Origin: Chitinophaga sancti
GTDB taxonomy: Bacteria > Bacteroidota > Bacteroidia > Chitinophagales > Chitinophagaceae
DNA length: 64,000 bases
Reading direction: 5' to 3'
Assembly (NCBI RefSeq): GCF_034087045.1
Contig: NZ_CP139247.1
Span: 2,196,001-2,260,000, forward strand
Positions 1 to 29,389 of this stretch are shown piece after piece (position 1 is the stretch's first letter; each line of letters opens with the position of its first letter). The position numbers were made by a program, and so were the translations under genes. The notes below the pieces were generated by a model. The model did no database searches. It saw only the letters and a program-made list of their open reading frames with translations, and had not been told where the DNA came from.

Positions 1-1741
1 CTACCGTGTACCACGTGTAGGTTTCGTAAACAAAATGGACCGTGCCGGTGCTGACTTCCTGAACGTGGTAAAACAGGTGAAGGAAATGCTGGGTGCAAAT
101 CCGGTTCCACTGATGCTGCCTATCGGCGCTGAAGATACTTTCAAAGGCGTGGTTGACCTGATCACCATGAAGGGTATCATCTGGGACGAAGAAGGTAAAG
201 GTGCTACCTACCAGGAAATCGAAATTCCTGCTGATATGAAGGATGAGGCTGAAGAATGGAGAGCTAAACTCGTAGAAGCTGTTGCTGAATACGATGACAA
301 ACTCATGGAGAAATTCTTCGAAGATCCTAACACTATCTCTGAAGATGAAATTCACGAAGCTATCCGTAAAGCAACGATCGATATCGCTATCATCCCAATG
401 CTGTGCGGTTCTTCATTCAAAAATAAAGGTGTACAGAAAATGCTGGATGCCGTATGTCGTTACCTGCCTTCACCAGTAGATATCGAAGCGGTTAAAGGTA
501 CTGATCCTGACAATGGTAATGAGATCGAGCGTAAGCCAGATGCAAAAGAACCATTCGCAGCATTGGCGTTCAAAATCATGACCGATCCATTCGTAGGTCG
601 TCTGGCGTTCTTCCGGGCTTATTCCGGTCACCTGGATGCTGGTTCTTATGTACTGAACACCCGTACAGGTAAAAATGAGCGTATCAGCCGTATCATGCAG
701 ATGCACGCCAACAAGCAGAATCCAATCGACTTCATCGAAGCTGGTGATATCGGTGCTGCTGTAGGTTTTAAAGATATCAAAACAGGTGATACCCTGTGCG
801 ATGAGAAAAATCCTATCGTACTGGAATCTATGACCTTCCCTGAACCAGTTATCCACATCGCTATCGAGCCTAAAACCCAGGCGGATATGGACAAAATGGG
901 TCTGGCTATCGCTAAACTGGTAGAAGAAGATCCTACTCTGAAAGCTAAAACTGATGAAGAAACCGGCCAGACCGTATTGAGCGGTATGGGTGAGCTTCAC
1001 CTGGAAATCATCGTTGACCGTATGCGTCGCGAGTTCAAGGTAGAAGTTAACCAGGGTGCACCTCAGGTTGCTTTCAAGGAAGCATTCACACTGAAGGTTG
1101 AACACCGTGAGGTTTATAAGAAACAAACTGGTGGTCGCGGTAAATTCGCAGACATCCAGATCGAACTCGGCCCTGCTGATCCAGAATGGCTGAAAGAGAA
1201 CGACGGTAAACAATTCCAGTTCATCAACGATATCTTTGGTGGTTCCATCCCTAAAGAATTCGTTGCTCCGGTACAGAAAGGCTTTGAGTCTGCTATGAAC
1301 CAGGGTGTACTGGCTGGCTACCCGCTGGATAACCTGAGAGTTCGCCTGTATGATGGTTCATTCCACCAGGTTGACTCCGATGCAGTATCCTTCGAATTGG
1401 CTGCAAGATCAGCTTTCCGTGAAGCAGGTCGTAAAGCAAAACCAGTTCTGCTGGAACCAATCATGAAAGTAGAAGTTCAGACCCCAGACCAATACATGGG
1501 TGACGTAACAGGTGACCTGAACCGTCGTCGTGGTATGCTGGAAGGTATGGAAATGAGAAACGGTGTACAGGTAATCAAAGCTAAAGTACCTCTGAAAGAA
1601 ATGTTCGGATATGTAACTCAGCTGCGCTCCCTGTCTTCCGGTCGTGCTACTTCCATCATGGAGTTCTCTCACTACTCTCCTGCTCCAAATGCTGTTGCTG
1701 AAGAAGAAATGGCAAAGGCAAAAGGTAAAGTGAATGCATAA
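1..1741 (+). CDS. fusA: Elongation factor G (EF-G), 5'-truncated by window edge
   Basis: Translational GTPase that drives ribosome translocation. The frame is already open at base 2 and runs for 579 codons to TAA at 1739-1741. A full EF-G has about 700 residues, so roughly the first 120 (P-loop and switch regions) lie to the left. The first visible residues include the G4 motif NKMD (bases 32-43). The G5-like segment CGSSFKNKG follows, then domain II, and the domain IV motif [11 protein letters not shown]. The last residues are the usual charged EF-G tail. It would normally be followed directly by rpsJ. Here a strong terminator and 3 kb of other material intervene. Identification is secure; the start is not visible. 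Confidence 0.97.
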
Positions 1742-1767
1742 TCATGATTAGTATCTGATTGAATATG

Positions 1768-1804
1768 GTCCCGTTCCGGTTACTCCGGAACGGGACTTTT
1801 GTTT
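1768..1804 (+). terminator. Intrinsic terminator of fusA
   Basis: A 12-bp stem (left arm GTCCCGTTCCGG, right arm CCGGAACGGGAC, with a few loop bases) is followed by a T-rich run. It lies 26 nt after the fusA stop, so the str-type operon appears to end here instead of reading into the S10 operon. Confidence 0.9.
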
Positions 1805-1919
1805 GGGGCAATTTGTAACATCTCTCTCTCTGCAACGTTTTATCCTCAAGATTTTGGTTCTTCTATAAGGATAGTATACATCCAAAATTGTCTCTATACA
1901 AAAGCCGACTTTAACCGAA

Positions 1920-2561
1920 ATGAACATCCCCCGAATTTTGATCAGTATCGATCTGGAAGAGTTGGAGCTGACAGCCAATAATAATGGCCAGGAGATGAGC
2001 CTGGAAGAAAGGCAGCAGATTTCACTGGATGGTTTGGAAAAAACAATCACCTTACTGGACAAGTACCAGGTAAGAGCTACTTTTTTTATTACCTCCTCTT
2101 GGGCGCAGGCCTATCCGGAAGTGGTCCGTCAGTTAACCCGTAAGCACGAAGTAGCCTCACATGGTGCTTTTGATAAAGAAGTACTGGAGCAGATCATTGG
2201 TAACCGTTTATACGGTTGTCGCATGGGGGCATCCATAAAGCCCGATTATAGCTCGCTGAGGGCAGCCGGGTACTTATACCACTCCGGTGGTCAGCAGGTA
2301 CGTCCTATGACCATAGAGGGGGATTGCTATGAGATTTATGCGGAGTCTATGCCTCCGTTGTGGATCACGAAACTCTTTTTAGGCCGTCAACCTGTTATTT
2401 CAATACGTTTTCATAGTTGGGAATTAAGTGTACACCCCATTTCGCGTGCTACCGGCCCCAGATTGGCGGAGCGATTGGACAGCGTGCTGGGTTATCTGCA
2501 ACGCAAAGGTCAGTTTATCCCCCATATTGAGTGGCTGCAGGAACAGCTTACAGACGAGTAA
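1920..2561 (+). CDS. Short polysaccharide-deacetylase-like (NodB fold) protein
   Basis: A 213-residue protein with the order of motifs seen in the polysaccharide deacetylase family: a strand ending in Asp-Leu-Glu-Glu near residue 11 (position of the catalytic/metal Asp), a TFFITSSWA strand near residue 55, the segment HEVASHG near residue 80, and FHSWELSVH near residue 167. The family metal motif is His-X3-His. Here the second His position reads Asp (SHGAFD), so classical metal binding may be impaired. No signal peptide is seen, so a cytoplasmic protein is likely. It is short for the family. A divergent enzyme acting on an N-acetyl sugar, or a non-catalytic relative, are both possible. The ATG at 1920 is the first reasonable start. 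Confidence 0.6.
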   Translation: MNIPRILISIDLEELELTANNNGQEMSLEERQQISLDGLEKTITLLDKYQVRATFFITSSWAQAYPEVVRQLTRKHEVASHGAFDKEVLEQIIGNRLYGCRMGASIKPDYSSLRAAGYLYHSGGQQVRPMTIEGDCYEIYAESMPPLWITKLFLGRQPVISIRFHSWELSVHPISRATGPRLAERLDSVLGYLQRKGQFIPHIEWLQEQLTDE

Positions 2562-2834
2562 TAGCCATCGATTGCAATACCCGCTTCATTTACTCTCATT
2601 TTCTTTATACTTATTTAATTCATTTCCAGTATATTCGCAATTATATTGTTGATGTCTGGCACTGAATTTGGAATACCCCATTTGTCCCCCCATCCCTCCT
2701 TATTTATCCTCTTATCTTATTGCCTCAGGTTCCATTAGCAAAATGAGACACAATTACAGATTGCATGTATTTCTTCGTTCGGTAGGGCATTGTCCCGATG
2801 GCAAGTATTAATCAATAAAATCAAACAACTGAAA

Positions 2835-3443
2835 ATGAAAAAATTCCAAGCATTAACCCTGGCCCTGATTACAGTATTGTTTTTTAGCACCACGGCATTT
2901 GCGCAGACCCAGAAAGGAAATATTTTGATTGGATCTGACATTACAGACATTGGGTTGAATTTTCAAAAATCCAGTACCCAGTTTAGTTTTAATCTGAACC
3001 CTAAAGCAGCCTGGTTTATCAGTGATGGGTTGGCAGTGGGTGGATATGTGAATTTCGGGTTGTCGACCAGTAATGGAGCAGGTTCTGATGTAAGTTATGG
3101 TATTGGTGCCCTGGCGCGTTATTATCCGACAGACAAGAATGTGCAGAAGCTGGAGTTTTCCAAGCGTGCAAGGTTTTTTGTAGAGGGTAATGCTGGTTTT
3201 GGTGGTACAAATCCTGCGAGTGGCGCATCTACGAATGGGGTAGAGTTGGGTGTAGGCCCTGGTATTTCTTACTTCATTACACCTAATGTGGCGTTGGAAA
3301 CGCTGTTGAAGTACAATATTATTGTTGGTGGTGGTAACTCAACTACGGCACAGCAGTTGAACCTGGGTGTAGGTTTCCAGATTTTCCTGCCTGGAGCGAA
3401 GGCGAAGGAGATCTACAACGAGGAGAAGCGTAATATGAAATAG
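2835..3443 (+). CDS. Outer-membrane beta-barrel protein
   Basis: A 202-residue protein that starts with a clear Sec signal peptide (MKKFQALTLALITVLFF, cleavage expected after AFA near residue 23-24). The remainder has alternating hydrophobic/polar strands rich in Gly and aromatics (ISDGLAVGGYVNFGL, GVGPGISYFITPNVALE, QQLNLGVGFQIFL), typical of small Bacteroidota porin-like barrels of about 200 residues. An ATG 45 nt upstream is in frame but would bury the signal peptide, so 2835 is preferred. It lies just upstream of the three micro-ORF repeats and codirectional with them. No terminator is evident directly after it. The function (adhesin, porin or structural) cannot be told from sequence. Confidence 0.75.
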   Translation: MKKFQALTLALITVLFFSTTAFAQTQKGNILIGSDITDIGLNFQKSSTQFSFNLNPKAAWFISDGLAVGGYVNFGLSTSNGAGSDVSYGIGALARYYPTDKNVQKLEFSKRARFFVEGNAGFGGTNPASGASTNGVELGVGPGISYFITPNVALETLLKYNIIVGGGNSTTAQQLNLGVGFQIFLPGAKAKEIYNEEKRNMK

Positions 3444-3593
3444 GCATTAGAAAAATAATGAGGGGCCGCTTACGGATCATTTTGGTCTGTGGGTGGCCTT
3501 TTTCTGTTTTGAACACTTTGAATGAACTGGTTGATAATGAACATAATGAATGGTTGTAATAAGGGGAGTGACTATTATCTTTATATAAGTAAG

Positions 3594-3650
3594 ACGCCGC
3601 CACGGGCGTTGCTGGGATTGCCGAAAACCAGTTAATTAAAAGAGTAGGCG
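3594..3650 (+). promoter_or_regulatory. Conserved structured leader motif, copy 1
   Basis: ACGCC (3594-3598) can pair with GGCGT (3605-3609). Four nucleotides later comes GGGATTGCCGAAAACCA (3614-3630), identical in all three units, then a variable linker and AGAGTAGGCG (3641-3650). GCC of the first block can pair with GGC of the second, with a flanking T-G wobble, which suggests a compact fold just before the micro-ORF. I do not recognise it as a described riboswitch family. Confidence 0.6.
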
Positions 3651-3673
3651 TTTACCCTCTGAAACTAAGAAAA

Positions 3674-3736
3674 ATGACCGCAACTATTCTCGCAGCATTG
3701 ACAAAGTTCTTGTATACTCTGTTCGGTAGCCTGTAA
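3674..3736 (+). CDS. Micro-ORF 1, 20-residue hydrophobic peptide
   Basis: ATG to TAA encodes MTATILAALTKFLYTLFGSL (20 residues), with a single charged residue (Lys11). The peptide is long enough to insert in or lie on a membrane. Residues 5-20 align with the C-terminal 16 residues of the unit 2 peptide without gaps: L, A, L, L, L, G, L match, and the end is L-(F/L)-G-(S/G)-L. It sits 24 nt after the conserved leader and 26 nt before its own terminator. No known family is recognised. By analogy with Ibs, Ldr or Fst peptides it could be a type I toxin; a secreted amphipathic peptide or a leader peptide are alternatives. Confidence 0.6.
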   Translation: MTATILAALTKFLYTLFGSL

Positions 3737-3762
3737 ATCCCCGAAACATTGACAAGCTTTTG

Positions 3763-3793
3763 AAGGTCCTGGTAATAACCGGGACCTTTTTTA
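3763..3793 (+). terminator. Terminator of cassette unit 1
   Basis: An 11-bp stem (AAGGTCCTGGT with ACCGGGACCTT, loop AATA) runs into six T. It closes the first micro-ORF unit. Confidence 0.85.
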
Positions 3794-3879
3794 TGTGGGG
3801 AATAATACTGAACAGGATTTACTGAACGAAATATACCGAACTGGTTGAAAATGAATGAAATGAACGATGGTAGTATTCC

Positions 3880-3941
3880 TTCTACTTACTAATTTTAGAA
3901 AAATGGGATTGCCGAAAACCATTATTAGAGTAGGCGTAACC
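3880..3941 (+). promoter_or_regulatory. Conserved structured leader motif, copy 2
   Basis: TTCTA (3880-3884) can pair with TAGAA (3896-3900), again exactly 4 nt before GGGATTGCCGAAAACCA (3905-3921). The linker is only five bases, followed by AGAGTAGGCGTAACC (3927-3941). The A/T stem is weak and overlaps a possible -7 box, so either the hairpin or the promoter reading may be wrong in this copy. Confidence 0.55.
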
Positions 3942-3958
3942 AGTGAAAAACCATAACT

Positions 3959-4027
3959 ATGGATCTGCTGAACCAATTATTGGCAACACTCTTAACGCTG
4001 TTGCAATCTCTGCTGGGTGGTCTGTAA
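3959..4027 (+). CDS. Micro-ORF 2, 22-residue leucine-rich peptide
   Basis: Encodes MDLLNQLLATLLTLL followed by QSLLGGL (22 residues); 11 are Leu and the only charge is Asp2. The first six residues MDLLNQ are identical to unit 3, but the codons differ at synonymous positions (CTG/TTA, CTG/TTG, CAA/CAG, then GCA/GCT for Ala9). Selection on the peptide therefore explains the pattern, which is the strongest evidence that this small frame is translated. It lies in a different frame from an 88-codon open stretch over the same DNA that has no such conservation. Confidence 0.7.
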   Translation: MDLLNQLLATLLTLLQSLLGGL

Positions 4028-4090
4028 TTTATTACGCCCCTGATTCCACGGAAAATGCCACGCAACAAAAAAGACATTTTCCAACTTATT

Positions 4091-4123
4091 GCCTTCCTGG
4101 TGCGAGCCGGGGAGGCTTTTTTT
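4091..4123 (+). terminator. Terminator of cassette unit 2
   Basis: A 10-bp stem (GCCTTCCTGG with CCGGGGAGGC, two G-T pairs, loop TGCGAG) is followed by seven T. Confidence 0.85.
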
Positions 4124-4308
4124 ATAATGAACGAGCTATCTCATGGAGAATGGGCCAGGGTTTGAAGGGGGAATCAGCGTATTCAGGAGTATTAGTTAAA
4201 AGAAAATGAACGGGCCATTTTGCTTTACTGAACGAAATGAACAAGCAGCTGAAAATGAATGAAATGAACTATTACAAATTGATTCCCTGCGGCTAATTTT
4301 AATCCAAT

Positions 4309-4368
4309 GTTCCTTGTATTAGGAGCATTTGGGATTGCCGAAAACCAAGTAACAGAGTAGGCATAACC
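4309..4368 (+). promoter_or_regulatory. Conserved structured leader motif, copy 3
   Basis: GTTCCT (4309-4314) pairs with AGGAGC (4321-4326) around a 6-nt loop, again 4 nt before GGGATTGCCGAAAACCA (4331-4347). In the second block GGCG becomes GGCA, turning the T-G wobble with the first block into T-A, a change that keeps the proposed pairing. Confidence 0.6.
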
Positions 4369-4393
4369 TTATGAAAAGCCTTCAAAAACATCT

Positions 4394-4468
4394 ATGGATT
4401 TATTGAACCAGGTATTGGCTTTAGTTCTTGGTCTGATTCAGCAATTGTTGGGTAAGTTACCTCTCTGA
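4394..4468 (+). CDS. Micro-ORF 3, 24-residue hydrophobic peptide
   Basis: Encodes MDLLNQVLALVLGLI followed by QQLLGKLPL (24 residues), homologous to micro-ORF 2 along its length (MDLLNQ, LA, L, Q and LLG conserved) with synonymous codon changes between them. Charges are Asp2 and Lys21, consistent with a short amphipathic or membrane-spanning helix. Its spacing from the leader (25 nt after the last conserved base) matches the other units. Family unknown. Confidence 0.7.
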   Translation: MDLLNQVLALVLGLIQQLLGKLPL

Positions 4469-4516
4469 AGCTGACAGGTCTAGAAATATTGCTTATTGCA
4501 TTCCCAGACAGGACTT

Positions 4517-4547
4517 GCTGCCGGTTTTCCGGCGGCTTGTTTTTTTT
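4517..4547 (+). terminator. Terminator of cassette unit 3
   Basis: An 8-bp GC-rich stem (GCTGCCGG with CCGGCGGC, TTTT loop) is followed by TTGTTTTTTTT. Confidence 0.9.
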
Positions 4548-4707
4548 AGGGGGGGGATGGGAGGCAGCGAAGCCAACAGTGTGCCAATTTTCCTATAAAT
4601 AGCTATTTTCCTGCCTGAATTAGACTTTTACACAAATTAACATTTGCCCCAAACCCGCTGTCATTCTACATTTAACTAAAAAAGACATTTATTTTTCCCC
4701 GGTATTG

Positions 4708-4738
4708 TTGGGGAATACAAAAATACTGATTACCTTTG
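4708..4738 (+). promoter_or_regulatory. Promoter of the S10 operon
   Basis: TTG (4708-4710), 20 nt, then TACCTTTG (4731-4738), a full match to the Bacteroidota -33/-7 pattern. The rpsJ ATG is 43 nt further on. Together with the fusA terminator it shows that the S10 operon is started separately here. Confidence 0.8.
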
Positions 4739-4781
4739 CCCTCCCAAATTGTAAAGGGAAAAAAGTAGAAGTTCATTGCAT

Positions 4782-5087
4782 ATGTCTCAGAGAATTAGAA
4801 TCAAGCTGAAGTCCTACGATCATAATCTGGTAGATAAGTCTGCTGAGAAGATCGTTAAAACAGTGCGTAACACTGGTGCCGTGGTAACAGGTCCAATACC
4901 TTTGCCAACTGAAAAGAAAATTTTTACGGTGCTGCGTTCACCGCACGTTAACAAGAAAGCTCGTGAGCAGTTCCAGTTGTGCACACACAAGCGCTTACTG
5001 GATATCTACACCTCTTCTTCCAGGACTGTAGACGCCTTGAGTAAGTTAGATCTGCCTTCCGGTGTGGAAGTAGAAATCAAAGCGTAG
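4782..5087 (+). CDS. rpsJ: 30S ribosomal protein S10
   Basis: 101 residues, starting [20 protein letters not shown], the usual S10 start, with the typical [24 protein letters not shown] core. An ATG two codons upstream is in frame but family comparison favours 4782. S10 is part of the 30S head and of NusB-S10 antitermination complexes. It is the first gene of the S10 operon, 43 nt after the -7 box. Confidence 0.97.
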
Positions 5088-5095
5088 GACATCAG

Positions 5096-5118
5096 CAGGT
5101 AGGCAAAAGGCCTGCCTG
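5096..5118 (+). other. Stem-loop after rpsJ
   Basis: CAGGTAGGC (5096-5104) pairs with GCCTGCCTG (5110-5118), 9 bp including one G-T, loop AAAAG. There is no T-run, so it is unlikely to be a simple terminator. Confidence 0.6.
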
Positions 5119-5259
5119 GTTTGATTTAATCTTATGACTGCTGTTTTGCTGGCAGTGAGGTGTACAATCTCACAGGGGAAAGTAATCTCCGTTTGCCAGC
5201 GTGTAAACGCCACAAATTAAAATATAGGTCACGCCTTCTGGGTGGCCGCCCAATAAAGC

Positions 5260-5325
5260 ATTTAAACCGCCTATCCTGGGGATAGCTAGATCCACCCCCA
5301 GGCGCTGGGTATAATATATAATAAC
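5260..5325 (+). promoter_or_regulatory. Hairpin immediately upstream of rplC (possible operon leader)
   Basis: CCTGGGG (5275-5281) pairs with CCCCAGG (5296-5302). A nested alternative, TATCC (5272-5276) with GGATA (5280-5284), competes with it. The 238-nt rpsJ-rplC gap is long for an S10 operon, and mutually exclusive stems just before a start codon resemble autogenous control elements. No known r-protein leader family was recognised. Confidence 0.35.
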
Positions 5326-5943
5326 ATGAAAGGTATTATTGGCAAAAAGATCGGCATGACCAGCATCTTCGAACCGAATGGTAAGCAGACTGCTGTGACC
5401 ATCATCGAGGCCGGTCCGTGCGTAGTAACTCAGGTTAAATCTCAAGAGACTGACGGTTACAACGCTATTCAGGTAGCATTTGGCGAGAAAAAAGAAAAGA
5501 ACGCTACCAAAGCACAAATCAATCACTTCGCGAAAGCAAGCACCTCCCCCAAACGATTTGTAAAAGAGTTCCGCAACCCGGATGTACAAAAAGCTCTTGG
5601 TGAAACCATTACCACCGAAATATTTGCAGAAGGAGAAACAATTGACGTAGTCGGTACCTCAAAAGGTAAAGGCTTCCAGGGTGTTGTTAAACGCCATGGA
5701 TTTAGCGGTGTGGGCGAAGCTACACACGGTCAGCACGACAGAAGCAGAGCTCCTGGTTCCGTGGGTGGATCCTCTTATCCTTCCCGCGTATTCAAGGGTA
5801 TGCGTATGGCTGGTCAAACCGGTAATGAGCAGGTGAAAGTTAAAGGTCTTAAGATCGTTAAGATTTTCGCTGAGAAAAATTATATCCTGGTAAGTGGTTC
5901 CGTTCCCGGCCACATTGGTTCAATCGTTTTAATCCAGAAGTAA
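5326..5943 (+). CDS. rplC: 50S ribosomal protein L3
   Basis: 205 residues starting [15 protein letters not shown]. The conserved loop [14 protein letters not shown] and [12 protein letters not shown] (about residues 134-165) reach the peptidyl-transferase region of 23S rRNA. Followed after 1 nt by rplD, so the two are surely co-transcribed. Confidence 0.97.
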
Positions 5944-5944
5944 T

Positions 5945-6583
5945 ATGCAACTTGATATTTTAAATATAGAAGGTAAGAAAACAGGAAGAACTATTGAGCT
6001 CCCTGAAGAAATTTTCGGAGTGGAGCCTAACAACCACGTGATCTACCTGGCTGTTAAACAATACCTCGCTGCTCAGCGCCAGGGTACCCACAAGGTAAAG
6101 ACCCGTGCTGAAGTGAAAGGTGCTTCCCGTAAACTGCACAAGCAAAAAGGTACTGGTGGTTCCCGTAAAGGTAACATCCGTAACCCACTGTATAAAGGTG
6201 GTGGTACCATCTTCGGTCCAAAACCGCACAAATATGACATTAAGCTGAACAGGAAAGTAAAAGATCTCGCTAAGATTTCTGCACTGTCTGTAAAAGCTAA
6301 AGAAAACAGTATCATCGTTCTGGAAGATCTGAACCTGGCTACTCCTAAAACTTCACAGTTTGCGGGTATCCTGGCGAAACTGAACCTGAATGTAAATGGC
6401 CGTAAGACTTTGGTTGTACTGCCTGAATACAATGATAATGTGTACCTGTCTCTGCGCAACATCCCTACAGTAGATAGCGTAATGCTGAGCGATATCAATA
6501 CTTATGATATCATGAATAGCAATACCCTGATCATCACTGAGAGTGCTGCTAAAATCTTCACTGAAGAGCCGGTAGAAGCTTAA
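5945..6583 (+). CDS. rplD: 50S ribosomal protein L4
   Basis: 212 residues. It shows the L4 exit-tunnel loop with KGTGGSRKGNIRNPLYKGGG (about residues 69-88) and the C-terminal LVVLPEYNDNVYLSLRNI region. In enterobacteria L4 controls the S10 operon; whether it does so here is unknown. Start ATG lies 1 nt after the rplC stop. Confidence 0.97.
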   Translation: MQLDILNIEGKKTGRTIELPEEIFGVEPNNHVIYLAVKQYLAAQRQGTHKVKTRAEVKGASRKLHKQKGTGGSRKGNIRNPLYKGGGTIFGPKPHKYDIKLNRKVKDLAKISALSVKAKENSIIVLEDLNLATPKTSQFAGILAKLNLNVNGRKTLVVLPEYNDNVYLSLRNIPTVDSVMLSDINTYDIMNSNTLIITESAAKIFTEEPVEA

Positions 6584-6606
6584 TTGTCAAATTTAAATCA
6601 CACAGC

Positions 6607-6624
6607 TGGCGGGAAAGCCTGCCA
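6607..6624 (+). other. Stem-loop between rplD and rplW
   Basis: TGGCGGG pairs with CCTGCCA, 7 bp with one G-T, loop AAAG. No T-run. Confidence 0.55.
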
Positions 6625-6640
6625 CTCAAAGCGATAAAAG

Positions 6641-6940
6641 ATGAAACTTTCAGACGTTTTAATCAGACCGGTAGTAAGTGAAAAAGTGAACAAAGCCACT
6701 GATAAATTCAACCGTTACTACTTCATCGTAGACAAGAAATCCAACAAACTGGAAATCAAGAAAGCAGTTGAAGAGTTCTATGGCGTTGCAGTATCAGAAG
6801 TGAACACTGCCGTTATGCCGGGTAAAGCAAAATTCCGCTTTACTAAAGCTGGTTTCATTGCTGGTAAGAAACCTTCTTACAAGAAAGCAATTGTAACCCT
6901 GGCTGCAGGAGAATCTATAGATCTGTATGCTAACATATAG
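6641..6940 (+). CDS. rplW: 50S ribosomal protein L23
   Basis: 99 residues; typical start (LSDVLIRPVVSEKVNKAT) and the C-terminal GFIAGKKPSYKKAIVTLAAG segment. L23 lies at the tunnel exit and is the docking site for trigger factor and SRP. S10 operon position conserved. Confidence 0.96.
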   Translation: MKLSDVLIRPVVSEKVNKATDKFNRYYFIVDKKSNKLEIKKAVEEFYGVAVSEVNTAVMPGKAKFRFTKAGFIAGKKPSYKKAIVTLAAGESIDLYANI

Positions 6941-6948
6941 TGCTCATA

Positions 6949-6964
6949 GCTGCGGCAACGCGGC
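6949..6964 (+). other. GNRA-capped stem-loop between rplW and rplB
   Basis: GCTGCG pairs with CGCGGC across a GCAA tetraloop. Short, no T-run. Confidence 0.45.
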
Positions 6965-7027
6965 ATGATGGATGTATATGCAGATCACATTTATAAATAA
7001 AGCAACTAGTTAAACAATTACTAGATC

Positions 7028-7858
7028 ATGGCACTGAAGAAATTTAAACCGATGACAGCCGGTACCCGTTGGAAAATTGGCAACGCGTTCGCTGAGCTGA
7101 CCACGGATACTCCTGAAAAGAGCCTGCTGGAGGCTAAGTCCAAAACCGGCGGTAGAAACGTACAGGGTAGAAGATCTATGCGCTACATCGGTGGTGGACA
7201 CAAGCAACATTACCGTATCATAGACTTCAAACGTGACAAACATAGTATTCCTGCTACTGTAAAGAGCATTGAGTACGATCCAAACCGTAGCGCATTCATC
7301 GCACTGCTGAACTATGCAGATGGTGAAAAACGTTACATCCTGGCTCCTCAGGGTTTACAGGTGGGTGCTACAGTAGTGAGCGGTCCTGATGCTGCTCCTG
7401 AAGTAGGTAACTCCCTGCCGCTGAGAAACATGCCACTGGGTACTGTTGTACACAATATCGAACTGCAGCCTGGTAGAGGTGGTGCAATCGCTAGAAGTGC
7501 CGGTACTTATGCACAGCTGAGCAACAAGGAAGAAAAATATGCCGTAATGAAAATGCCTTCTGGTGAGCTGCGTAAAGTGTTGATCACTTGTGCTGCTACT
7601 GTAGGTACAGTTTCTAACTCTGACCACGCACTGCAATCAATTGGTAAAGCGGGTGCTAACCGTTGGAGAGGTATCAAGCCACGTAACCGTGGTGTAGCCA
7701 TGAACCCTGTAGATCACCCGATGGGTGGTGGTGAAGGTAGATCTTCCGGAGGTCACCCTAGATCCAGGACAGGTAAATATGCGAAAGGTCTGAAGACTCG
7801 TAAGCATAAGAGCTCTGATAAACTGATCATCAGCAGGAAAAACGGCAAAAAATTATAA
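7028..7858 (+). CDS. rplB: 50S ribosomal protein L2
   Basis: 276 residues, normal length. The [19 protein letters not shown] segment near residue 225 contains the conserved His implicated in peptidyl transfer and subunit association, and the C-terminus is the usual basic tail. Followed by a 79-nt gap with a 10-bp hairpin. Confidence 0.97.
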
Positions 7859-7876
7859 TTCATAAAGCTTTTACCA

Positions 7877-7909
7877 GTTCCGCTTCGGGTGGATAGCCAG
7901 AAGCGGAAC
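7877..7909 (+). other. Stem-loop between rplB and rpsS
   Basis: GTTCCGCTTC (7877-7886) pairs perfectly with GAAGCGGAAC (7900-7909), 13-nt loop. No T-run on the + strand. Confidence 0.65.
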
Positions 7910-7937
7910 GGTTAAAGTAGAATAAAAATAAAAAGAC

Positions 7938-8204
7938 ATGGGTCGTTCCATTAGAAAAGGTCCTTACGTTGACCAGAAATTAGGAAAGAAAGTAGATAAA
8001 ATGAATGAAGGCACCAAGCGTACTGTAATCAAGACGTGGAGCCGTCGTTCTACCATCACACCTGATTTTGTGGGCCATACATTTGCGGTACACAATGGTA
8101 ACAAGTTCATTCCGGTATACGTTACTGAGTTTATGGTAGGTCATAAACTGGGAGAATTTGCACCAACCCGCAACTTTAAAGGACACGCTAACAAGAAAAT
8201 GTAG
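7938..8204 (+). CDS. rpsS: 30S ribosomal protein S19
   Basis: 88 residues beginning [15 protein letters not shown] and ending with [15 protein letters not shown], diagnostic for S19, which sits in the 30S head next to S13. Confidence 0.97.
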
Positions 8205-8226
8205 TCATTCGTTTGAAGTTTTAAGC

Positions 8227-8254
8227 TCGAGGTTTGCAGCATAATATACCTCGA
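8227..8254 (+). other. Stem-loop between rpsS and rplV
   Basis: TCGAGGT (8227-8233) pairs with ACCTCGA (8248-8254), 14-nt loop. It lies upstream of the preferred rplV start. Confidence 0.5.
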
Positions 8255-8296
8255 ACCCGGGACTTCGGACCTCAAACATTCAAATTTATAATTACA

Positions 8297-8653
8297 ATGG
8301 AAGCAGTAGCTAAGCTTAATAATAATCCAACATCTACCCGCAAAATGCGTCTGCTGGCAGACCTGATCCGTGGTATGGAAGTTGAGAAAGCGCTGAATGT
8401 ATTAAAGTTCCATCCTAAGCACCCAAGTGTACCTCTGGAAAAACTGCTGTTGTCAGCTGTTGCGAACTGGAAAGTAAAGAACGAAGGTGTACGCGTTGAA
8501 GATGCGAATCTGATCGTTAAAACCATTTTCGTTGATGGTGGTCGTATCCTGAAAAGAATGCGTCCGGCTCCACAGGGTAGAGGTTACCGTGTTCGCAAAA
8601 GAAGCAACCACGTAACCCTTGCAGTTGACAGCAAAGTGGCTGAGGCTAAATAA
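8297..8653 (+). CDS. rplV: 50S ribosomal protein L22
   Basis: 118 residues from ATG 8297 ([20 protein letters not shown]). A longer frame opens at 8234, but its extra 21 residues do not resemble L22 and cross the intercistronic hairpin, so 8297 is chosen. The exit-tunnel hairpin region ([20 protein letters not shown], near residue 80) is intact; this is where macrolide-related changes would occur. Confidence 0.95.
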
Positions 8654-8695
8654 AAGAAACTAAACTATTTATCTAATAGACAAATAAACCAGAAC

Positions 8696-9499
8696 ATGGG
8701 TCAGAAAACAAATCCTATTGGTAACAGGTTAGGTATCATCAGAGGTTGGGACTCTAATTGGTATGGTGGCAAAAAAGATTATGCTACCAAACTGATCGAA
8801 GATAACAAGATCAGAACTTACCTGAATGCCCGTATCAACAAAGGTGGCATTTCCAGGGTAGTGATCGAGAGAACTTTAGGTAAACTGATCATCACCATCC
8901 ATACATCCAAGCCTGGTATCATCATAGGTAAAGGTGGTGGAGAGGTAGACCGCATCAAGGAAGAAATAAAGAAACTGACTTCTAAAGAAGACGTACAGAT
9001 CAACATTCTGGAGATCCGTCGTCCTGAAATAGATGCCAATATCGTAGCTGAAACTATCGCAAAACAGATTGAAAGCCGTATCAACTACAAACGTGCTATC
9101 AAGATGGCGATTGCTACTGCAATGAGAATGGGTGCTGAAGGTATCAAGGTTAAAGTTGGTGGTCGTCTGGGTGGTGCCGAAATCGCACGTTCAGAAGAGA
9201 TGAAGCAAGGTCGTGTACCTTTGCACACCTTCCGTATGGATATCGACTATTCTTCTCTGTTTGCACAAACAGTATATGGTAAGATCGGGATCAAAGTATG
9301 GATCTGTAAAGGTGAAGTACTGGGTGAGCGCGATCTGAATCCAAATGCTATTTCCGGTAAGGATGGCGAAGGCCGCACAGGTGGTGAAGGTCATGGTCAT
9401 CGTGGTGGAGAAAGAAGAGGCGGTGGCGACAGAAGAGGTGGCGATAACCGCGGCGGCGACAGAAGAGGTGGTGATAACCGTGGTGGTGGCCGTAGATAA
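8696..9499 (+). CDS. rpsC: 30S ribosomal protein S3 with RGG-like C-terminal tail
   Basis: 267 residues against about 210-235 in most bacteria. The N-terminal KH domain has the GXXG loop in [19 protein letters not shown] (about residues 74-92); the C-terminal S3 domain follows. From about residue 221 the protein becomes a low-complexity tail of Gly, Arg and Asp with several RRGGD and NRGGD units. The tail DNA (about 9400-9495) carries near-identical repeats of about 27-39 nt, which could expand or contract by slippage. Tails of this kind suggest extra RNA contacts. The core function in mRNA entry and 30S head structure is not in doubt. Confidence 0.96.
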
Positions 9500-9539
9500 T
9501 CTTTTTAACAATTAACATTAACATTTAACATATACTAAG

Positions 9540-9962
9540 ATGTTACAGCCCAAGAGAACGAAACACAGGAAGATGCATAAAGGCCGCATCAAGGGGAACG
9601 CAAAACGTGGTGCGGATATCTCCTTTGGTAGTTTCGGCTTGAAAGCATTAGAACCTAAGTGGATCACAGACAGGCAGATCGAAGCTGCTCGTGTGGCTCT
9701 GACAAGAGCAATGAAACGTGAGGGTAACGTGTGGATCCGTATATTCCCTGACAAATCCATCACAGCCAAGCCTTTGGAAGTCAGAATGGGTAAAGGTAAA
9801 GGTGCTCCTGACCATTGGGCTGCTGTAGTTAAGCCAGGTCGTATGTTGTTCGAAGCGGACGGCGTACCTCTGGAAGTAGCTAAAGCTGCAATGGAGCTGG
9901 CTGCACAGAAACTGCCTATTAAAGTGAAATTTGTAGTACGTCGCGATTACGCTGAAGCATAA
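9540..9962 (+). CDS. rplP: 50S ribosomal protein L16
   Basis: 140 residues starting [19 protein letters not shown], typical of L16, which organises the A-site region of the 50S subunit. The motif [16 protein letters not shown] is present, as is the [15 protein letters not shown] segment. Confidence 0.97.
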
Positions 9963-10016
9963 TTGCTAAAGCAACCGGGATAAACTATAAACGATAAACC
10001 AGAAATAATAAATACA

Positions 10017-10217
10017 ATGGCAAACGAAAAGCTGGATCTGAAAGGTTTAAGCGAACAGGAGCTGAAAGAGAAAATCTCCGAAGAGCAATTACGCCTGAAG
10101 AAAATTACATTCAGTCACGCAATTACGCCAATTGAGAATCCAATGAGCATCCGCTCTCTCAGGCGTCAGATCGCACAGCTGAAAACTGAGCTGCGCAAAA
10201 GAGAACTGGGCTTCTAA
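10017..10217 (+). CDS. rpmC: 50S ribosomal protein L29
   Basis: 66 residues, two helices with the typical motif MSIRSLRRQIAQLKTELRKRE at the C-terminus. It binds near L23 at the tunnel exit. Confidence 0.95.
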   Translation: MANEKLDLKGLSEQELKEKISEEQLRLKKITFSHAITPIENPMSIRSLRRQIAQLKTELRKRELGF

Positions 10218-10281
10218 GCCTTAAAAATAAATTCATTCATCGGTCCGTAAGGAGCGGTCTGGGTAATAAATACTTTCAACA

Positions 10282-10539
10282 ATGAGCGAAAGAAAATTAA
10301 GAAAAACCAGAATTGGTGTCGTTTCCAGCAACAAAGCGGAAAAAACAATCAGCGTTAGCGTTGAGCGTAAAGTGAAGCACCCGATCTATGGTAAATTCGT
10401 AAAAAAAACCACCAAGTTCATGGCTCATGACGAGCTGAACCAGTGCAGCATCGGCGATACCGTTAGAATAATGGAAACCCGTCCGTTGAGCAAGAATAAG
10501 TGCTGGAGATTGATAGAGGTGATCGAAAAGGTAAAATAA
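10282..10539 (+). CDS. rpsQ: 30S ribosomal protein S17
   Basis: 85 residues, an OB-fold primary 16S rRNA binder; the motif [27 protein letters not shown] and the end [19 protein letters not shown] are diagnostic (shown here only as landmarks). Normal length. Confidence 0.96.
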
Positions 10540-10555
10540 TTTATTATTGTTTCAA

Positions 10556-10582
10556 GCTGCATGCAGCGTTCCTGGATGCAGC
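10556..10582 (+). other. Stem-loop between rpsQ and rplN
   Basis: GCTGCAT pairs with ATGCAGC, 7 bp, 13-nt loop. No T-run. Confidence 0.5.
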
Positions 10583-10615
10583 CGCTGATTAAACAAATAC
10601 AAATCTTATAAAAAG

Positions 10616-10984
10616 ATGATACAACAAGAATCAAGGCTGAATGTAGCTGATAACAGTGGTGCCAAGGAAGTACTGTGTATTAGAGTGTTAGGCAACTCCG
10701 GCCAGGACTACGCAAAAGTAGGTGACAAGATCGTTGTTACTGTAAAAGACGCGATCGCAGGTGGTGGTGTGAAAAAAGGTACAGTGCACAAAGCTGTTAT
10801 CGTAAGAACTAAAAACAAGCTGCGCCGTAAAGACGGATCTTATATCCGTTTCGACGATAATGCCGTTGTATTACTGAACAACTCTGACGAGCCACGCGGT
10901 ACCCGTATCTTCGGACCAGTTGCCCGTGAGCTGCGCGATAAGGGATACATGAAGATTATCTCTCTGGCTCCCGAAGTATTGTAA
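10616..10984 (+). CDS. rplN: 50S ribosomal protein L14
   Basis: 122 residues starting [21 protein letters not shown], the L14 signature region, and ending [11 protein letters not shown]. It forms part of the intersubunit bridge and of the binding site of silencing factor RsfS. It starts the spc-type part of the cluster. Confidence 0.97.
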
Positions 10985-11001
10985 AGATATTCAATGCGTT
11001 C

Positions 11002-11054
11002 GCTGAAAGCATAAAGCAAAAAGTAAAAAAAGCTTATTGCTTTGTGCTTTCAGC
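11002..11054 (+). repeat. 18-bp inverted repeat between rplN and rplX
   Basis: GCTGAAAGCATAAAGCAA (11002-11019) pairs with TTGCTTTGTGCTTTCAGC (11037-11054) with one non-canonical position. There is no following T-run. The right arm overlaps the -33 element of the promoter upstream of rplX. The core AAGCATAAAGC recurs in the secY-map hairpin. Confidence 0.75.
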
Positions 11055-11071
11055 ATAAATGCATATCTTTG
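11041..11071 (+). promoter_or_regulatory. Internal promoter upstream of rplX
   Basis: TTTG (11041-11044), 19 nt, TATCTTTG (11064-11071): a perfect match to the Bacteroidota consensus in the 159-nt rplN-rplX gap. It would allow rplX and the downstream genes to be transcribed independently of the S10 promoter. Confidence 0.75.
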
Positions 11072-11143
11072 CTGCCCGTTTCTAAAACGAATATTAATCA
11101 AGCGGAACCGATGTTTCGCTTGGCGTTTATAAATAAACAAATA

Positions 11144-11482
11144 ATGAAAACGAGATTCAAGCCTAAGTTCAACATTAAGAAAGGCGACACCGTTGTAGTG
11201 ATTGCCGGCGATGATAAGGACAGGACCAAGCCCCGTCAGGTGCTGGAAGTGATCCCTGACAAGGCGCGCGTACTGGTAGAAGGTGTGAACATCATCACCA
11301 AACATACCAAACCAACTGCTCAAAATACCAAAGGTGGTATCGTTAAGCAGGAAGCTCCTATCGCCATTTCTAACGTAATGTTGTGGGATGCTAAGGCTGG
11401 TAAACCTACCAAGGTAAACCGTCAGCGTGAAAATGGTAAATTAGTTCGTATAGCTAAAAAATCAGGGGAGGCAATCAAATAA
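11144..11482 (+). CDS. rplX: 50S ribosomal protein L24
   Basis: 112 residues from ATG 11144 ([20 protein letters not shown]), with the KOW motif near residues 10-40 and [20 protein letters not shown]. The frame is open further upstream, but that stretch would overlap the internal promoter and has no L24 similarity. Its TAA overlaps the rplE ATG by one base (TAATG), a sign of translational coupling. Confidence 0.95.
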
Positions 11483-12057
11483 TGGCAAACACTACATATA
11501 CACCCAGACTGCAGACTAAATACCGTACTGAAGTAGTTAATACTCTGCACAAAAAATTCAACTACAAAAGCGTAATGCAGGTACCTCGCCTGGTGAAGAT
11601 CTGTCTGAACCAGGGTATCAATGGTGCTGTAGGTGATAAGAAACTGGTAGATATTGCTGTGGATGAAATGACCCGTATCTCCGGTCAGAAAGCTATCGCT
11701 ACTTTATCCAAAAAGGATATTTCCAATTTCAAACTCAGGAAGAACATGCCAATCGGTGCTCGTGTAACACTGCGTGGTTATAACATGTACGAATTCCTGG
11801 ATCGTCTGATCGCTGTATCACTGCCTCGTGTACGTGACTTCAAGGGTATCAATGAAAAAGCTTTCGATGGCCGCGGTAACTATACCCTGGGTATCAATGA
11901 GCAGATCATCTTCCCTGAGATCGACATCGATAAAGTAACAAAGATCTCCGGTATGGATATCACTTTCGTTACTACGGCAAACACCAATGAAGAAGCTTAC
12001 GAGCTCCTGAAAGAATTGGGTATGCCGTTCAAGAACATCAAGAAAGATCAACAATAA
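11482..12057 (+). CDS. rplE: 50S ribosomal protein L5
   Basis: 191 residues; contains [20 protein letters not shown] and [20 protein letters not shown], diagnostic for L5, the 5S rRNA binding protein at the central protuberance. Coupled to rplX by a 1-nt overlap. Confidence 0.97.
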
Positions 12058-29027: not shown

Positions 29028-29389
29028 GGTATCGTTGTAGGTTTAAGAAATGACAAGTAGTACAGGTACAAATATGATAAATAGTTTTATAATATTTATT
29101 ATTCCGGCAAAAGAAATTCCTAATTGAGCGAAACAGGACAATTAAGTTAGGATTACTAATGTTTAAACATTTTTTTCTGTAAGTATGTTATAATTCTGTA
29201 GTGAGTGATACTTAATATATTAGACATTGATTTTTTCTTAGTCATCAGGAATGAATAAAATGAATGTTTGAAAATCAGCGCGCAGGATATAAATTGTATT
29301 GTATTTTTTTAGAGGGCGAATTGAACAAGCACCACGTTACGATAGGTTAATAGTAATTAAATTATTTAATTATCAACCCAAATCCATTT
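29028..29389. other. Non-coding stretch upstream of the response regulator
   Basis: About 360 A/T-rich bases with no credible ORF. A GAATGAATAAAATGAATG segment near 29249-29266 loosely resembles the TGAA boxes of the micro-ORF units. Possible -7 boxes are weak. Nothing else is seen. Confidence 0.5.

What the first reader, a model, noticed from the sequence alone, without database searches (positions are those of the whole stretch)
3508..4547. Three tandem units: invariant structured leader plus hydrophobic micro-ORF plus terminator
Seen: three head-to-tail units of about 290-324 nt. Each has a TGAA-rich box, the identical 17-nt motif GGGATTGCCGAAAACCA, AGAGTAGGC a short distance later, a 20-24 codon ORF for a very hydrophobic peptide, and its own intrinsic terminator. 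Established knowledge: tandem repeated loci encoding small hydrophobic peptides occur in type I toxin-antitoxin families (Ibs/Sib, Ldr/Rdl, Fst). Inference: this may be an undescribed multi-copy small-peptide system with RNA-level control. Alternatives are a ligand-sensing leader that controls a secreted amphipathic peptide, or a signalling peptide. I do not recognise the leader or the peptides from any described family.
Basis: partly seen in the sequence, partly recalled or inferred. Interest (0 to 1): 0.92.

Follow-up and report, generated by a model that had tools for sequence, protein, structure and literature searches.

The report
Conserved tandem micropeptide genes behind DUF805b RNA
This stretch carries three small genes in a row, each making a tiny, oily, helix-forming peptide and each led by the same folded RNA element; relatives keep both the peptides and the RNA, so they are real, but what the peptides do is still unknown.

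Summary
Three units (3510-4543) each have a TGAAY-repeat box, an identical leader, a 20-24-codon ORF and an intrinsic terminator.

The leader is not unknown: it is Rfam RF02914, DUF805b RNA. It folds as a two-stem pseudoknot supported by covariation.

The micro-ORFs are genes. Units lie upstream of rpsJ in 31 of 40 same-genus genomes. Peptide classes keep the order A-B-C-D and are under purifying selection. Related units occur in three other genera of the family. The peptides are near-neutral amphipathic helices; those tested match no Pfam, NCBIfam or PDB entry.

DUF805b sits 15-36 nt before the start codon in 87 of 95 sampled loci and recurs inside micropeptide operons, which points to translational control. 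Its other genes include RiPP/bacteriocin precursors and PixA proteins.

Nothing found supports a type I toxin-antitoxin system. Best reading: leaderless surface-active or antagonistic peptides in a DUF805b regulon. The anatomy is firm; peptide function is inference.

The parts
3510..3583 (+). Unit 1 promoter region: TGAAY repeat boxes 3510-3523 and 3538-3551, -7-like element TTATCTTTA 3575-3583
   Evidence: position-locked box and -7-like element across the genus
3611..3650 (+). Unit 1 DUF805b RNA (32.2 bits, below the 35.6-bit gathering score)
3674..3736 (+). Unit 1 micro-ORF, class A, MTATILAALTKFLYTLFGSL
   Evidence: class A dN/dS 0.31
3762..3789 (+). Unit 1 intrinsic terminator hairpin, followed by a T-run
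   Evidence: z -3.51
3852..3897 (+). Unit 2 promoter region: TGAAY box 3852-3865, -7-like element CTAATTTTA 3889-3897
3902..3936 (+). Unit 2 DUF805b RNA (39.6 bits, above gathering)
3959..4027 (+). Unit 2 micro-ORF, class C, MDLLNQLLATLLTLLQSLLGGL
   Evidence: class C dN/dS 0.14
4050..4116 (+). Unit 2 3' UTR hairpin (4050-4082) and intrinsic terminator hairpin (4091-4116)
   Evidence: z -2.93
4229..4301 (+). Unit 3 promoter region: TGAAY boxes 4229-4242 and 4256-4269, -7-like element CTAATTTTA 4293-4301
4328..4363 (+). Unit 3 DUF805b RNA (40 bits, above gathering)
4394..4468 (+). Unit 3 micro-ORF, class D, MDLLNQVLALVLGLIQQLLGKLPL
   Evidence: class D pN/pS 0.14
4510..4543 (+). Unit 3 intrinsic terminator hairpin
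   Evidence: z -2.94
4705..4738 (+). Separate canonical Bacteroidota-type promoter match (TTG-N23-TACCTTTG) upstream of rpsJ; not part of the units, shows rpsJ need not depend on them
   Evidence: consensus recalled

Best explanation
The locus is a tandem array of genes for leaderless, leucine-rich, amphipathic micropeptides. Shown by sequence: three units, each with a repeat-box promoter region, a DUF805b pseudoknot about 24 nt before the start codon, a 20-24-codon ORF under purifying selection in relatives, and a terminator. Inferred: an activator or dedicated sigma factor acting at the TGAAY box switches transcription on. The DUF805b pseudoknot then sets translation initiation of the ORF directly behind it, acting as an on/off or enhancing element that answers a ligand or an RNA-binding protein shared by a wider regulon. 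Each peptide folds as an amphipathic helix at a membrane surface. Because DUF805b in this phylum also precedes RiPP/bacteriocin precursors, PixA-type proteins and small secreted proteins, the peptides most likely act outside or at the surface of the cell as surface-active, antagonistic or signalling peptides rather than as an addiction toxin. My odds: anatomy and translation 0.9, DUF805b acting at translation 0.6, extracellular surface-active or antagonistic role 0.35.
For: RF02914 hits. 89 of 95 motif hits upstream of rpsJ carry a hydrophobic micro-ORF, in 31 of 40 genomes. dN/dS 0.31, 0.13 and 0.14 for classes A, B and C and pN/pS 0.14 for D, against frame+1 pN/pS of 0.37-0.92 and frame+2 of 1.63-6.41. 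The 26 genomes with two or more classed units all keep the order A, B, C, D (classes set by my own rules). Pseudoknot covariation: the P2 triplet pairs fully in 89 of 95 loci against a shuffled mean of 47.2, maximum 60; P1.1 89 of 95 against 39.9, P1.3 91 of 95 against 50.1, P2.3 91 of 95 against 51.8. The end of the P2 3' strand lies 15-36 nt before ATG in 87 of 95 loci. 13 of 89 units start 9-70 nt after the previous micro-ORF's stop without the promoter box, each still with its own DUF805b. Box-to--7 spacing is fixed at 22-23 nt in 57 of 66 units that have a box 30-75 nt upstream of the leader. Helical moment exceeds shuffles at p<=0.05 for 80 of 83 distinct peptides. Regulon: PixA 7, DUF6520 7 of 86 proteins; lant_leader_L1a 4, leader_Chryseo 2, GG_sam_targ_CFB 2 and three further RiPP/bacteriocin models with one each.
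Against: No transcript, translation or activity data. No signal peptide was recognised, and no transporter or immunity gene was seen in the translated ORFs of window 1-12000, though no family search was run on those neighbours. Net charge is near zero, unlike typical cationic antimicrobial peptides. The regulon also holds rhodopsins, a carbonic anhydrase and other unrelated proteins, so it is not purely antagonistic. The RiPP enrichment control is weak: for 82 control proteins only 25 of 621 families were printed, none below 3 members. Folding without pseudoknots gives the leaders no excess stability (z 0.34 for a unit 1 leader stretch, 0.09 for a unit 2 stretch that also holds spacer and start of ORF). 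Within the array alone the P2 pairs hardly vary, so the covariation comes from the wider family, and shuffles do not correct for relatedness.
Confidence: 0.45

Rival explanations
1. A type I toxin-antitoxin array: each unit makes a membrane-damaging peptide whose mRNA is silenced by an antisense or trans RNA, with DUF805b as part of the mRNA's self-repression.
For: Short hydrophobic peptides of 17-28 aa, tandem paralogues, structured mRNAs with own terminators; copy number varies from 1 to 4.
Against: No toxin-antitoxin RNA family was hit at gathering threshold. Peptides are amphipathic, not uniform transmembrane segments. Paralogues keep distinct sequences in fixed order, and presence needs only 2 changes on an rpsJ tree against a shuffled mean of 8.4, unlike a mobile addiction module. 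No reverse-strand match to the housekeeping promoter consensus in 32,175 bp of arrays, but the forward strand has only 2 against 3.2 expected, so that scan is uninformative.
Confidence: 0.15
2. Intracellular or envelope micropeptides: small membrane-associated regulators or stress peptides that never leave the cell, with DUF805b as a global translational stress switch.
For: No secretion signal recognised, stable vertical inheritance at one locus, dedicated promoter box, regulon including rhodopsins and a carbonic anhydrase.
Against: Many regulon members look secreted or antagonistic; three to four divergent paralogues in one array would be unusual for a single regulator target.
Confidence: 0.3
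3. The ORFs are dispensable readers: the transcripts act mainly as regulatory RNAs (dual-function RNAs), with conserved 3' UTR hairpins as the working part.
For: A structured 3' UTR; one class C example folds with z -6.63, and a GTAAGGGA...TCCCTTAC hairpin is visible in many class C units.
Against: Codon-level purifying selection in all four classes; in 13 units the 3' UTR is only 9-70 nt and runs into the next leader.
Confidence: 0.08

Closest known systems
DUF805b RNA (Rfam RF02914, clan CL00115)
   Same: Units 2 and 3 score above the gathering cut-off, unit 1 just below; same short stem, GCCGAAAA loop and AGAGUAGGC tail; upstream of ORFs.
   Different: The Rfam structure line printed shows only the P1 stem; here P2 (loop triplet with the 3' GGC) is supported too. 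The tandem use before leucine-rich micro-ORFs is not something I found in print (full-text searches of one open-licence library only).
Leaderless bacteriocins / phenol-soluble-modulin-like peptides (recalled, Firmicutes)
   Same: Short, leaderless, amphipathic helical peptides, often several paralogues side by side.
   Different: Near-neutral charge, different phylum, no linked exporter or immunity gene recognised, DUF805b leader; no sequence match tested or found.
Type I toxin-antitoxin loci Ibs/Sib, Ldr/Rdl, Fst (recalled)
   Same: Tandem small hydrophobic ORFs with structured mRNAs.
   Different: No Rfam hit, amphipathic peptides, positive-looking conserved leader shared with unrelated genes, no antisense RNA shown.
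Bacteroidota RiPP precursors (lant_leader_L1a, TIGR04149, leader_Chryseo)
   Same: Other members of the DUF805b-led gene set, including small peptides elsewhere in this genome.
   Different: The micropeptides match none of these models and have no leader/core layout or linked modification enzymes recognised.

Membership tests
DUF805b RNA (RF02914) | Covariance-model score at or above the gathering score | tested here: met
   Units 2 and 3: 39.6 and 40 bits against 35.6; unit 1 is below, 32.2 bits, E 6.3e-7
DUF805b RNA (RF02914) | P1 stem retained with compensatory change | tested here: met
   P1.1 89 of 95, P1.3 91 of 95, P1.4 76 of 95 paired, all above every shuffle
DUF805b RNA (RF02914) | Cis-regulatory place just before an ORF | tested here: met
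   15-36 nt before ATG in 87 of 95 loci; 17-31 nt in the 89 array units
DUF805b RNA (RF02914) | Regulates expression of the gene behind it | not testable with these tools
   Needs reporter assays
Type I toxin-antitoxin | Known toxin/antitoxin RNA family in the window | tested here: not met
   Only DUF805b reached gathering score
Type I toxin-antitoxin | Antisense or adjacent antitoxin RNA | tested here: inconclusive
   Consensus promoter scan finds none on the reverse strand of the arrays but is blind to these promoters too
Type I toxin-antitoxin | Toxicity of the peptide in the producing cell | not testable with these tools
   Needs induction experiments
Leaderless bacteriocin / PSM-like peptide | Short amphipathic helix without leader | tested here: met
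   80 of 83 distinct peptides exceed shuffles at p<=0.05
Leaderless bacteriocin / PSM-like peptide | Sequence match to a described family | tested here: not met
   0 families for 4 peptides in Pfam and 9 in NCBIfam; 0 PDB matches for one peptide
Leaderless bacteriocin / PSM-like peptide | Linked exporter or immunity gene | tested here: inconclusive
   None recognised by reading translations of window 1-12000; no family search of neighbours; unlinked genes not excluded
Leaderless bacteriocin / PSM-like peptide | Secretion and killing or surfactant activity | not testable with these tools
   Needs culture work
RiPP precursor | Match to a RiPP leader model | tested here: not met
   0 families for 9 micropeptides

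The most novel reading that the evidence does not exclude
DUF805b is a phylum-wide translational pseudoknot switch that co-ordinates a regulon of exported social and antagonistic factors in Bacteroidota, and the arrays encode an undescribed class of Gram-negative, leaderless, near-neutral amphipathic peptides made in sets of three or four distinct paralogues that act together at membranes.
Probability: 0.25. Interest if true: 0.85.

Novelty: new variant of a known kind. Interest (0 to 1): 0.6.

Why it matters
It ties an orphan Rfam element to a set of unannotated 17-28-aa genes that are too short for standard gene callers yet are conserved across a genus and found in three more genera. It gives DUF805b a concrete, testable role: one genome offers several reporters with the same leader, some inside operons, so the question of what the RNA senses or binds becomes directly testable. 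If the peptides prove surface-active or antagonistic they would be an undescribed peptide class in Gram-negative soil bacteria.

Tried and rejected
Type I toxin-antitoxin: considered first, not supported.

Leader as an unknown riboswitch: replaced by DUF805b. A ligand is neither shown nor excluded.

Control of rpsJ: rejected as the main role, since unit 3 ends in a terminator and rpsJ has its own canonical promoter match at 4705-4738.

First pseudoknot count was made in a wrong register (0 of 94 pairing); the register was corrected after reading the sequences and recounted. The pairing was therefore not predicted blind.

The TGAAY box as a genome-wide regulon marker: 11 strict matches against 0 for the reversed pattern, 3 of them in the array; the other 8 showed no clear common theme. 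Box plus -7-like element: 8 matches against 1 for the control, 2 in the array. So it looks largely specific to the array.

RiPP enrichment control: 85 size-matched proteins drawn; I dropped 3 that were DUF805b-led genes themselves; the family list was cut at 25 of 621, so it is inconclusive.

Rows dropped: 6 of 95 motif hits had no ORF meeting my rules (15-45 aa, at least half hydrophobic); 11 of 89 peptides fell in no class and were left out of the selection test, and identical sequences were merged (class D 24 to 22). Nine of the 95 downstream proteins were left out of the family scans (86 scanned): seven on purpose as micropeptides or a wrongly chosen ORF, two because open at a contig end.

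R1 model search of the family: 54 of 195 genomes matched at E<=0.001, but many are other DUF805b genes; I read the ORFs only for fetched loci. Class search: 4 of 295 genomes outside the genus matched, none with a micropeptide.

Literature: searches returned 0 papers; some searches were seen as listings only and no title concerned this RNA or these peptides; the 2017 survey of candidate RNAs that I recall as the source of DUF805b was not held.

Full report
Observation. The three units are present as described. The 17-mer occurs three times and only there in 64 kb, each copy followed by AGAGTAGGC. ORFs of 20, 22 and 24 codons start 23-31 nt further on. Each unit has TGAAY repeats upstream and a terminator hairpin. 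Motif spacing is 291 and 426 nt.

The leader. Rfam identifies it as DUF805b RNA, RF02914: units 2 and 3 at 39.6 and 40 bits (cut-off 35.6), unit 1 at 32.2 bits. The genome holding the window (8.32 Mb, one contig) has 13 matches at E<=1, four over the cut-off; I count about ten as credible from their sequence. At E<=1 all 14 control genomes also ring, none over the cut-off, so weak matches mean little. At E<=1e-6 none of the controls rings, while 94 of 147 genomes of the same family and 73 of 296 of the phylum do.

Structure. In 95 fetched loci the triplet before GAAAA pairs fully with the triplet after AGAGTA in 89, against a shuffled mean of 47.2 and maximum of 60. P1 shows four pair types at its first position (C-G 36, G-C 36, A-T 11, T-A 6; 89 of 95 paired against 39.9) and the third P2 pair five types (91 of 95 against 51.8). 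Pairs P1.2, P2.1 and P2.2 hardly vary and say little; P1.5, P2.4 and P2.5 are not supported. Shuffles do not correct for relatedness. The register was fixed after a first wrong attempt. Single-strand folding without pseudoknots shows no excess stability.

The peptides are genes. I searched rpsJ in 40 same-genus genomes and took about 3 kb upstream of each. There are 95 motif hits; 89, in 31 genomes, have a hydrophobic micro-ORF. Four classes account for 78: A 16, B 8, C 30, D 24. dN/dS is 0.31, 0.13 and 0.14 for A, B and C; D has pN/pS 0.14 with saturated synonymous change. Shifted frames give pN/pS 0.37-0.92 (+1) and 1.63-6.41 (+2). In the 26 genomes with at least two classed units the order is always A, B, C, D, with some classes missing. 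Presence or absence needs two changes on an rpsJ DNA tree against a shuffled mean of 8.4; eight of nine lacking genomes group together. A leader-plus-ORF model finds 31 of 40 genus genomes, and of the matches listed all but one (G037:C11:401488) lie within about 3.1 kb upstream of rpsJ. So the host is very probably Chitinophaga, though the tools give it no name.

Other genera. Among 195 family genomes the model matched 54 at E<=0.001. Reading fetched loci shows micropeptide units in three other genera: one with three in tandem (G065), one with five at three loci in G057 and one in G511, and one single longer peptide (G069). In G057 and G511 the promoter has a different repeat, TGTCAGATTCTGACA or TGACA repeats, with a TAnnTTTG-like element, while the DUF805b leader and peptide are kept. 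The promoter can change; the leader stays.

Transcription. 68 of 89 units have a TGAAY-N2-6-TGAAY box within 142 nt upstream, against 19 of 5000 shuffled windows. Of 66 with the box 30-75 nt from the leader, 57 have the best TTAATTTTAG-like element exactly 22-23 nt after it. The element's match score alone is only modestly above random; the fixed spacing is the stronger evidence.

Translation. 13 of 89 units start 9-70 nt after the stop of the previous micro-ORF and lack the box, yet each has its own DUF805b. I judged absence of terminators there from length and reading, not from a terminator scan. With the constant distance to ATG (87 of 95 loci at 15-36 nt, where the ORF was chosen as the longest ATG frame within 90 nt; 17-31 nt in array units) this favours action at translation initiation rather than at transcription termination. 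It is inference.

Peptide nature. 83 distinct peptides have mean GRAVY 1.46, net charge -1 to +1 in 78, and a helical moment above shuffles at p<=0.05 in 80. They are related, so this is not 80 independent tests. They match nothing in Pfam (4 tried), NCBIfam (9 tried) or PDB (1 tried).

Regulon. For 86 proteins behind DUF805b: PixA 7, DUF6520 7, rhodopsin 3 and others; class I lanthipeptide leader 4, Chryseo bacteriocin-like leader 2, GG rSAM RiPP 2, NHLP, TOMM and CCPGW one each. Models may overlap on one protein, so 11 matches are at most 11 proteins. The matched control is inconclusive because its list was cut.

Mechanism. I commit to: dedicated transcriptional activation at the repeat box, DUF805b setting translation, and an amphipathic peptide working at membranes, most likely outside or on the cell. 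The first parts rest on sequence, the last on regulon company and helix shape only.

Noticed in passing
own genome C1:2811110-2811578 (-), loci L004 and L008: DUF805b before small peptides of the type MKESTEMQRQQL..., RiPP-like by eye; no Pfam match for the one tested.
   Followed up: partly
own genome C1:8236216-8236253 (-), locus L010: A weak DUF805b match (21.2 bits) with a CTC/GAG pseudoknot triplet before a peptide MKKLALNPLALDMETIAKLDEKQLLEITGG... that looks like a lanthipeptide-type precursor.
   Followed up: partly
L144, L145, L168: DUF805b before rhodopsin genes (PF01036 matched by 3 of 86 proteins; these three by reading).
   Followed up: no
window 29252-29265: A TGAATAAAATGAAT box about 138 nt before a response-regulator gene; possibly chance.
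   Followed up: no
window 4371-4406: Unit 3 has an out-of-frame upstream ATG with an 11-codon ORF (MKSLQKHLWIY) overlapping the start of the class D peptide; seen in some relatives too.
   Followed up: no
L338-L340 (genus g18): Micropeptide promoters with TGTCAGATTCTGACA or TGACA repeats instead of TGAAY repeats.
   Followed up: partly
L102, L127, L130: A few array members have a hydrophobic N-part and a glycine/cysteine- or charge-rich tail (37-41 aa), unlike the four main classes.
   Followed up: no
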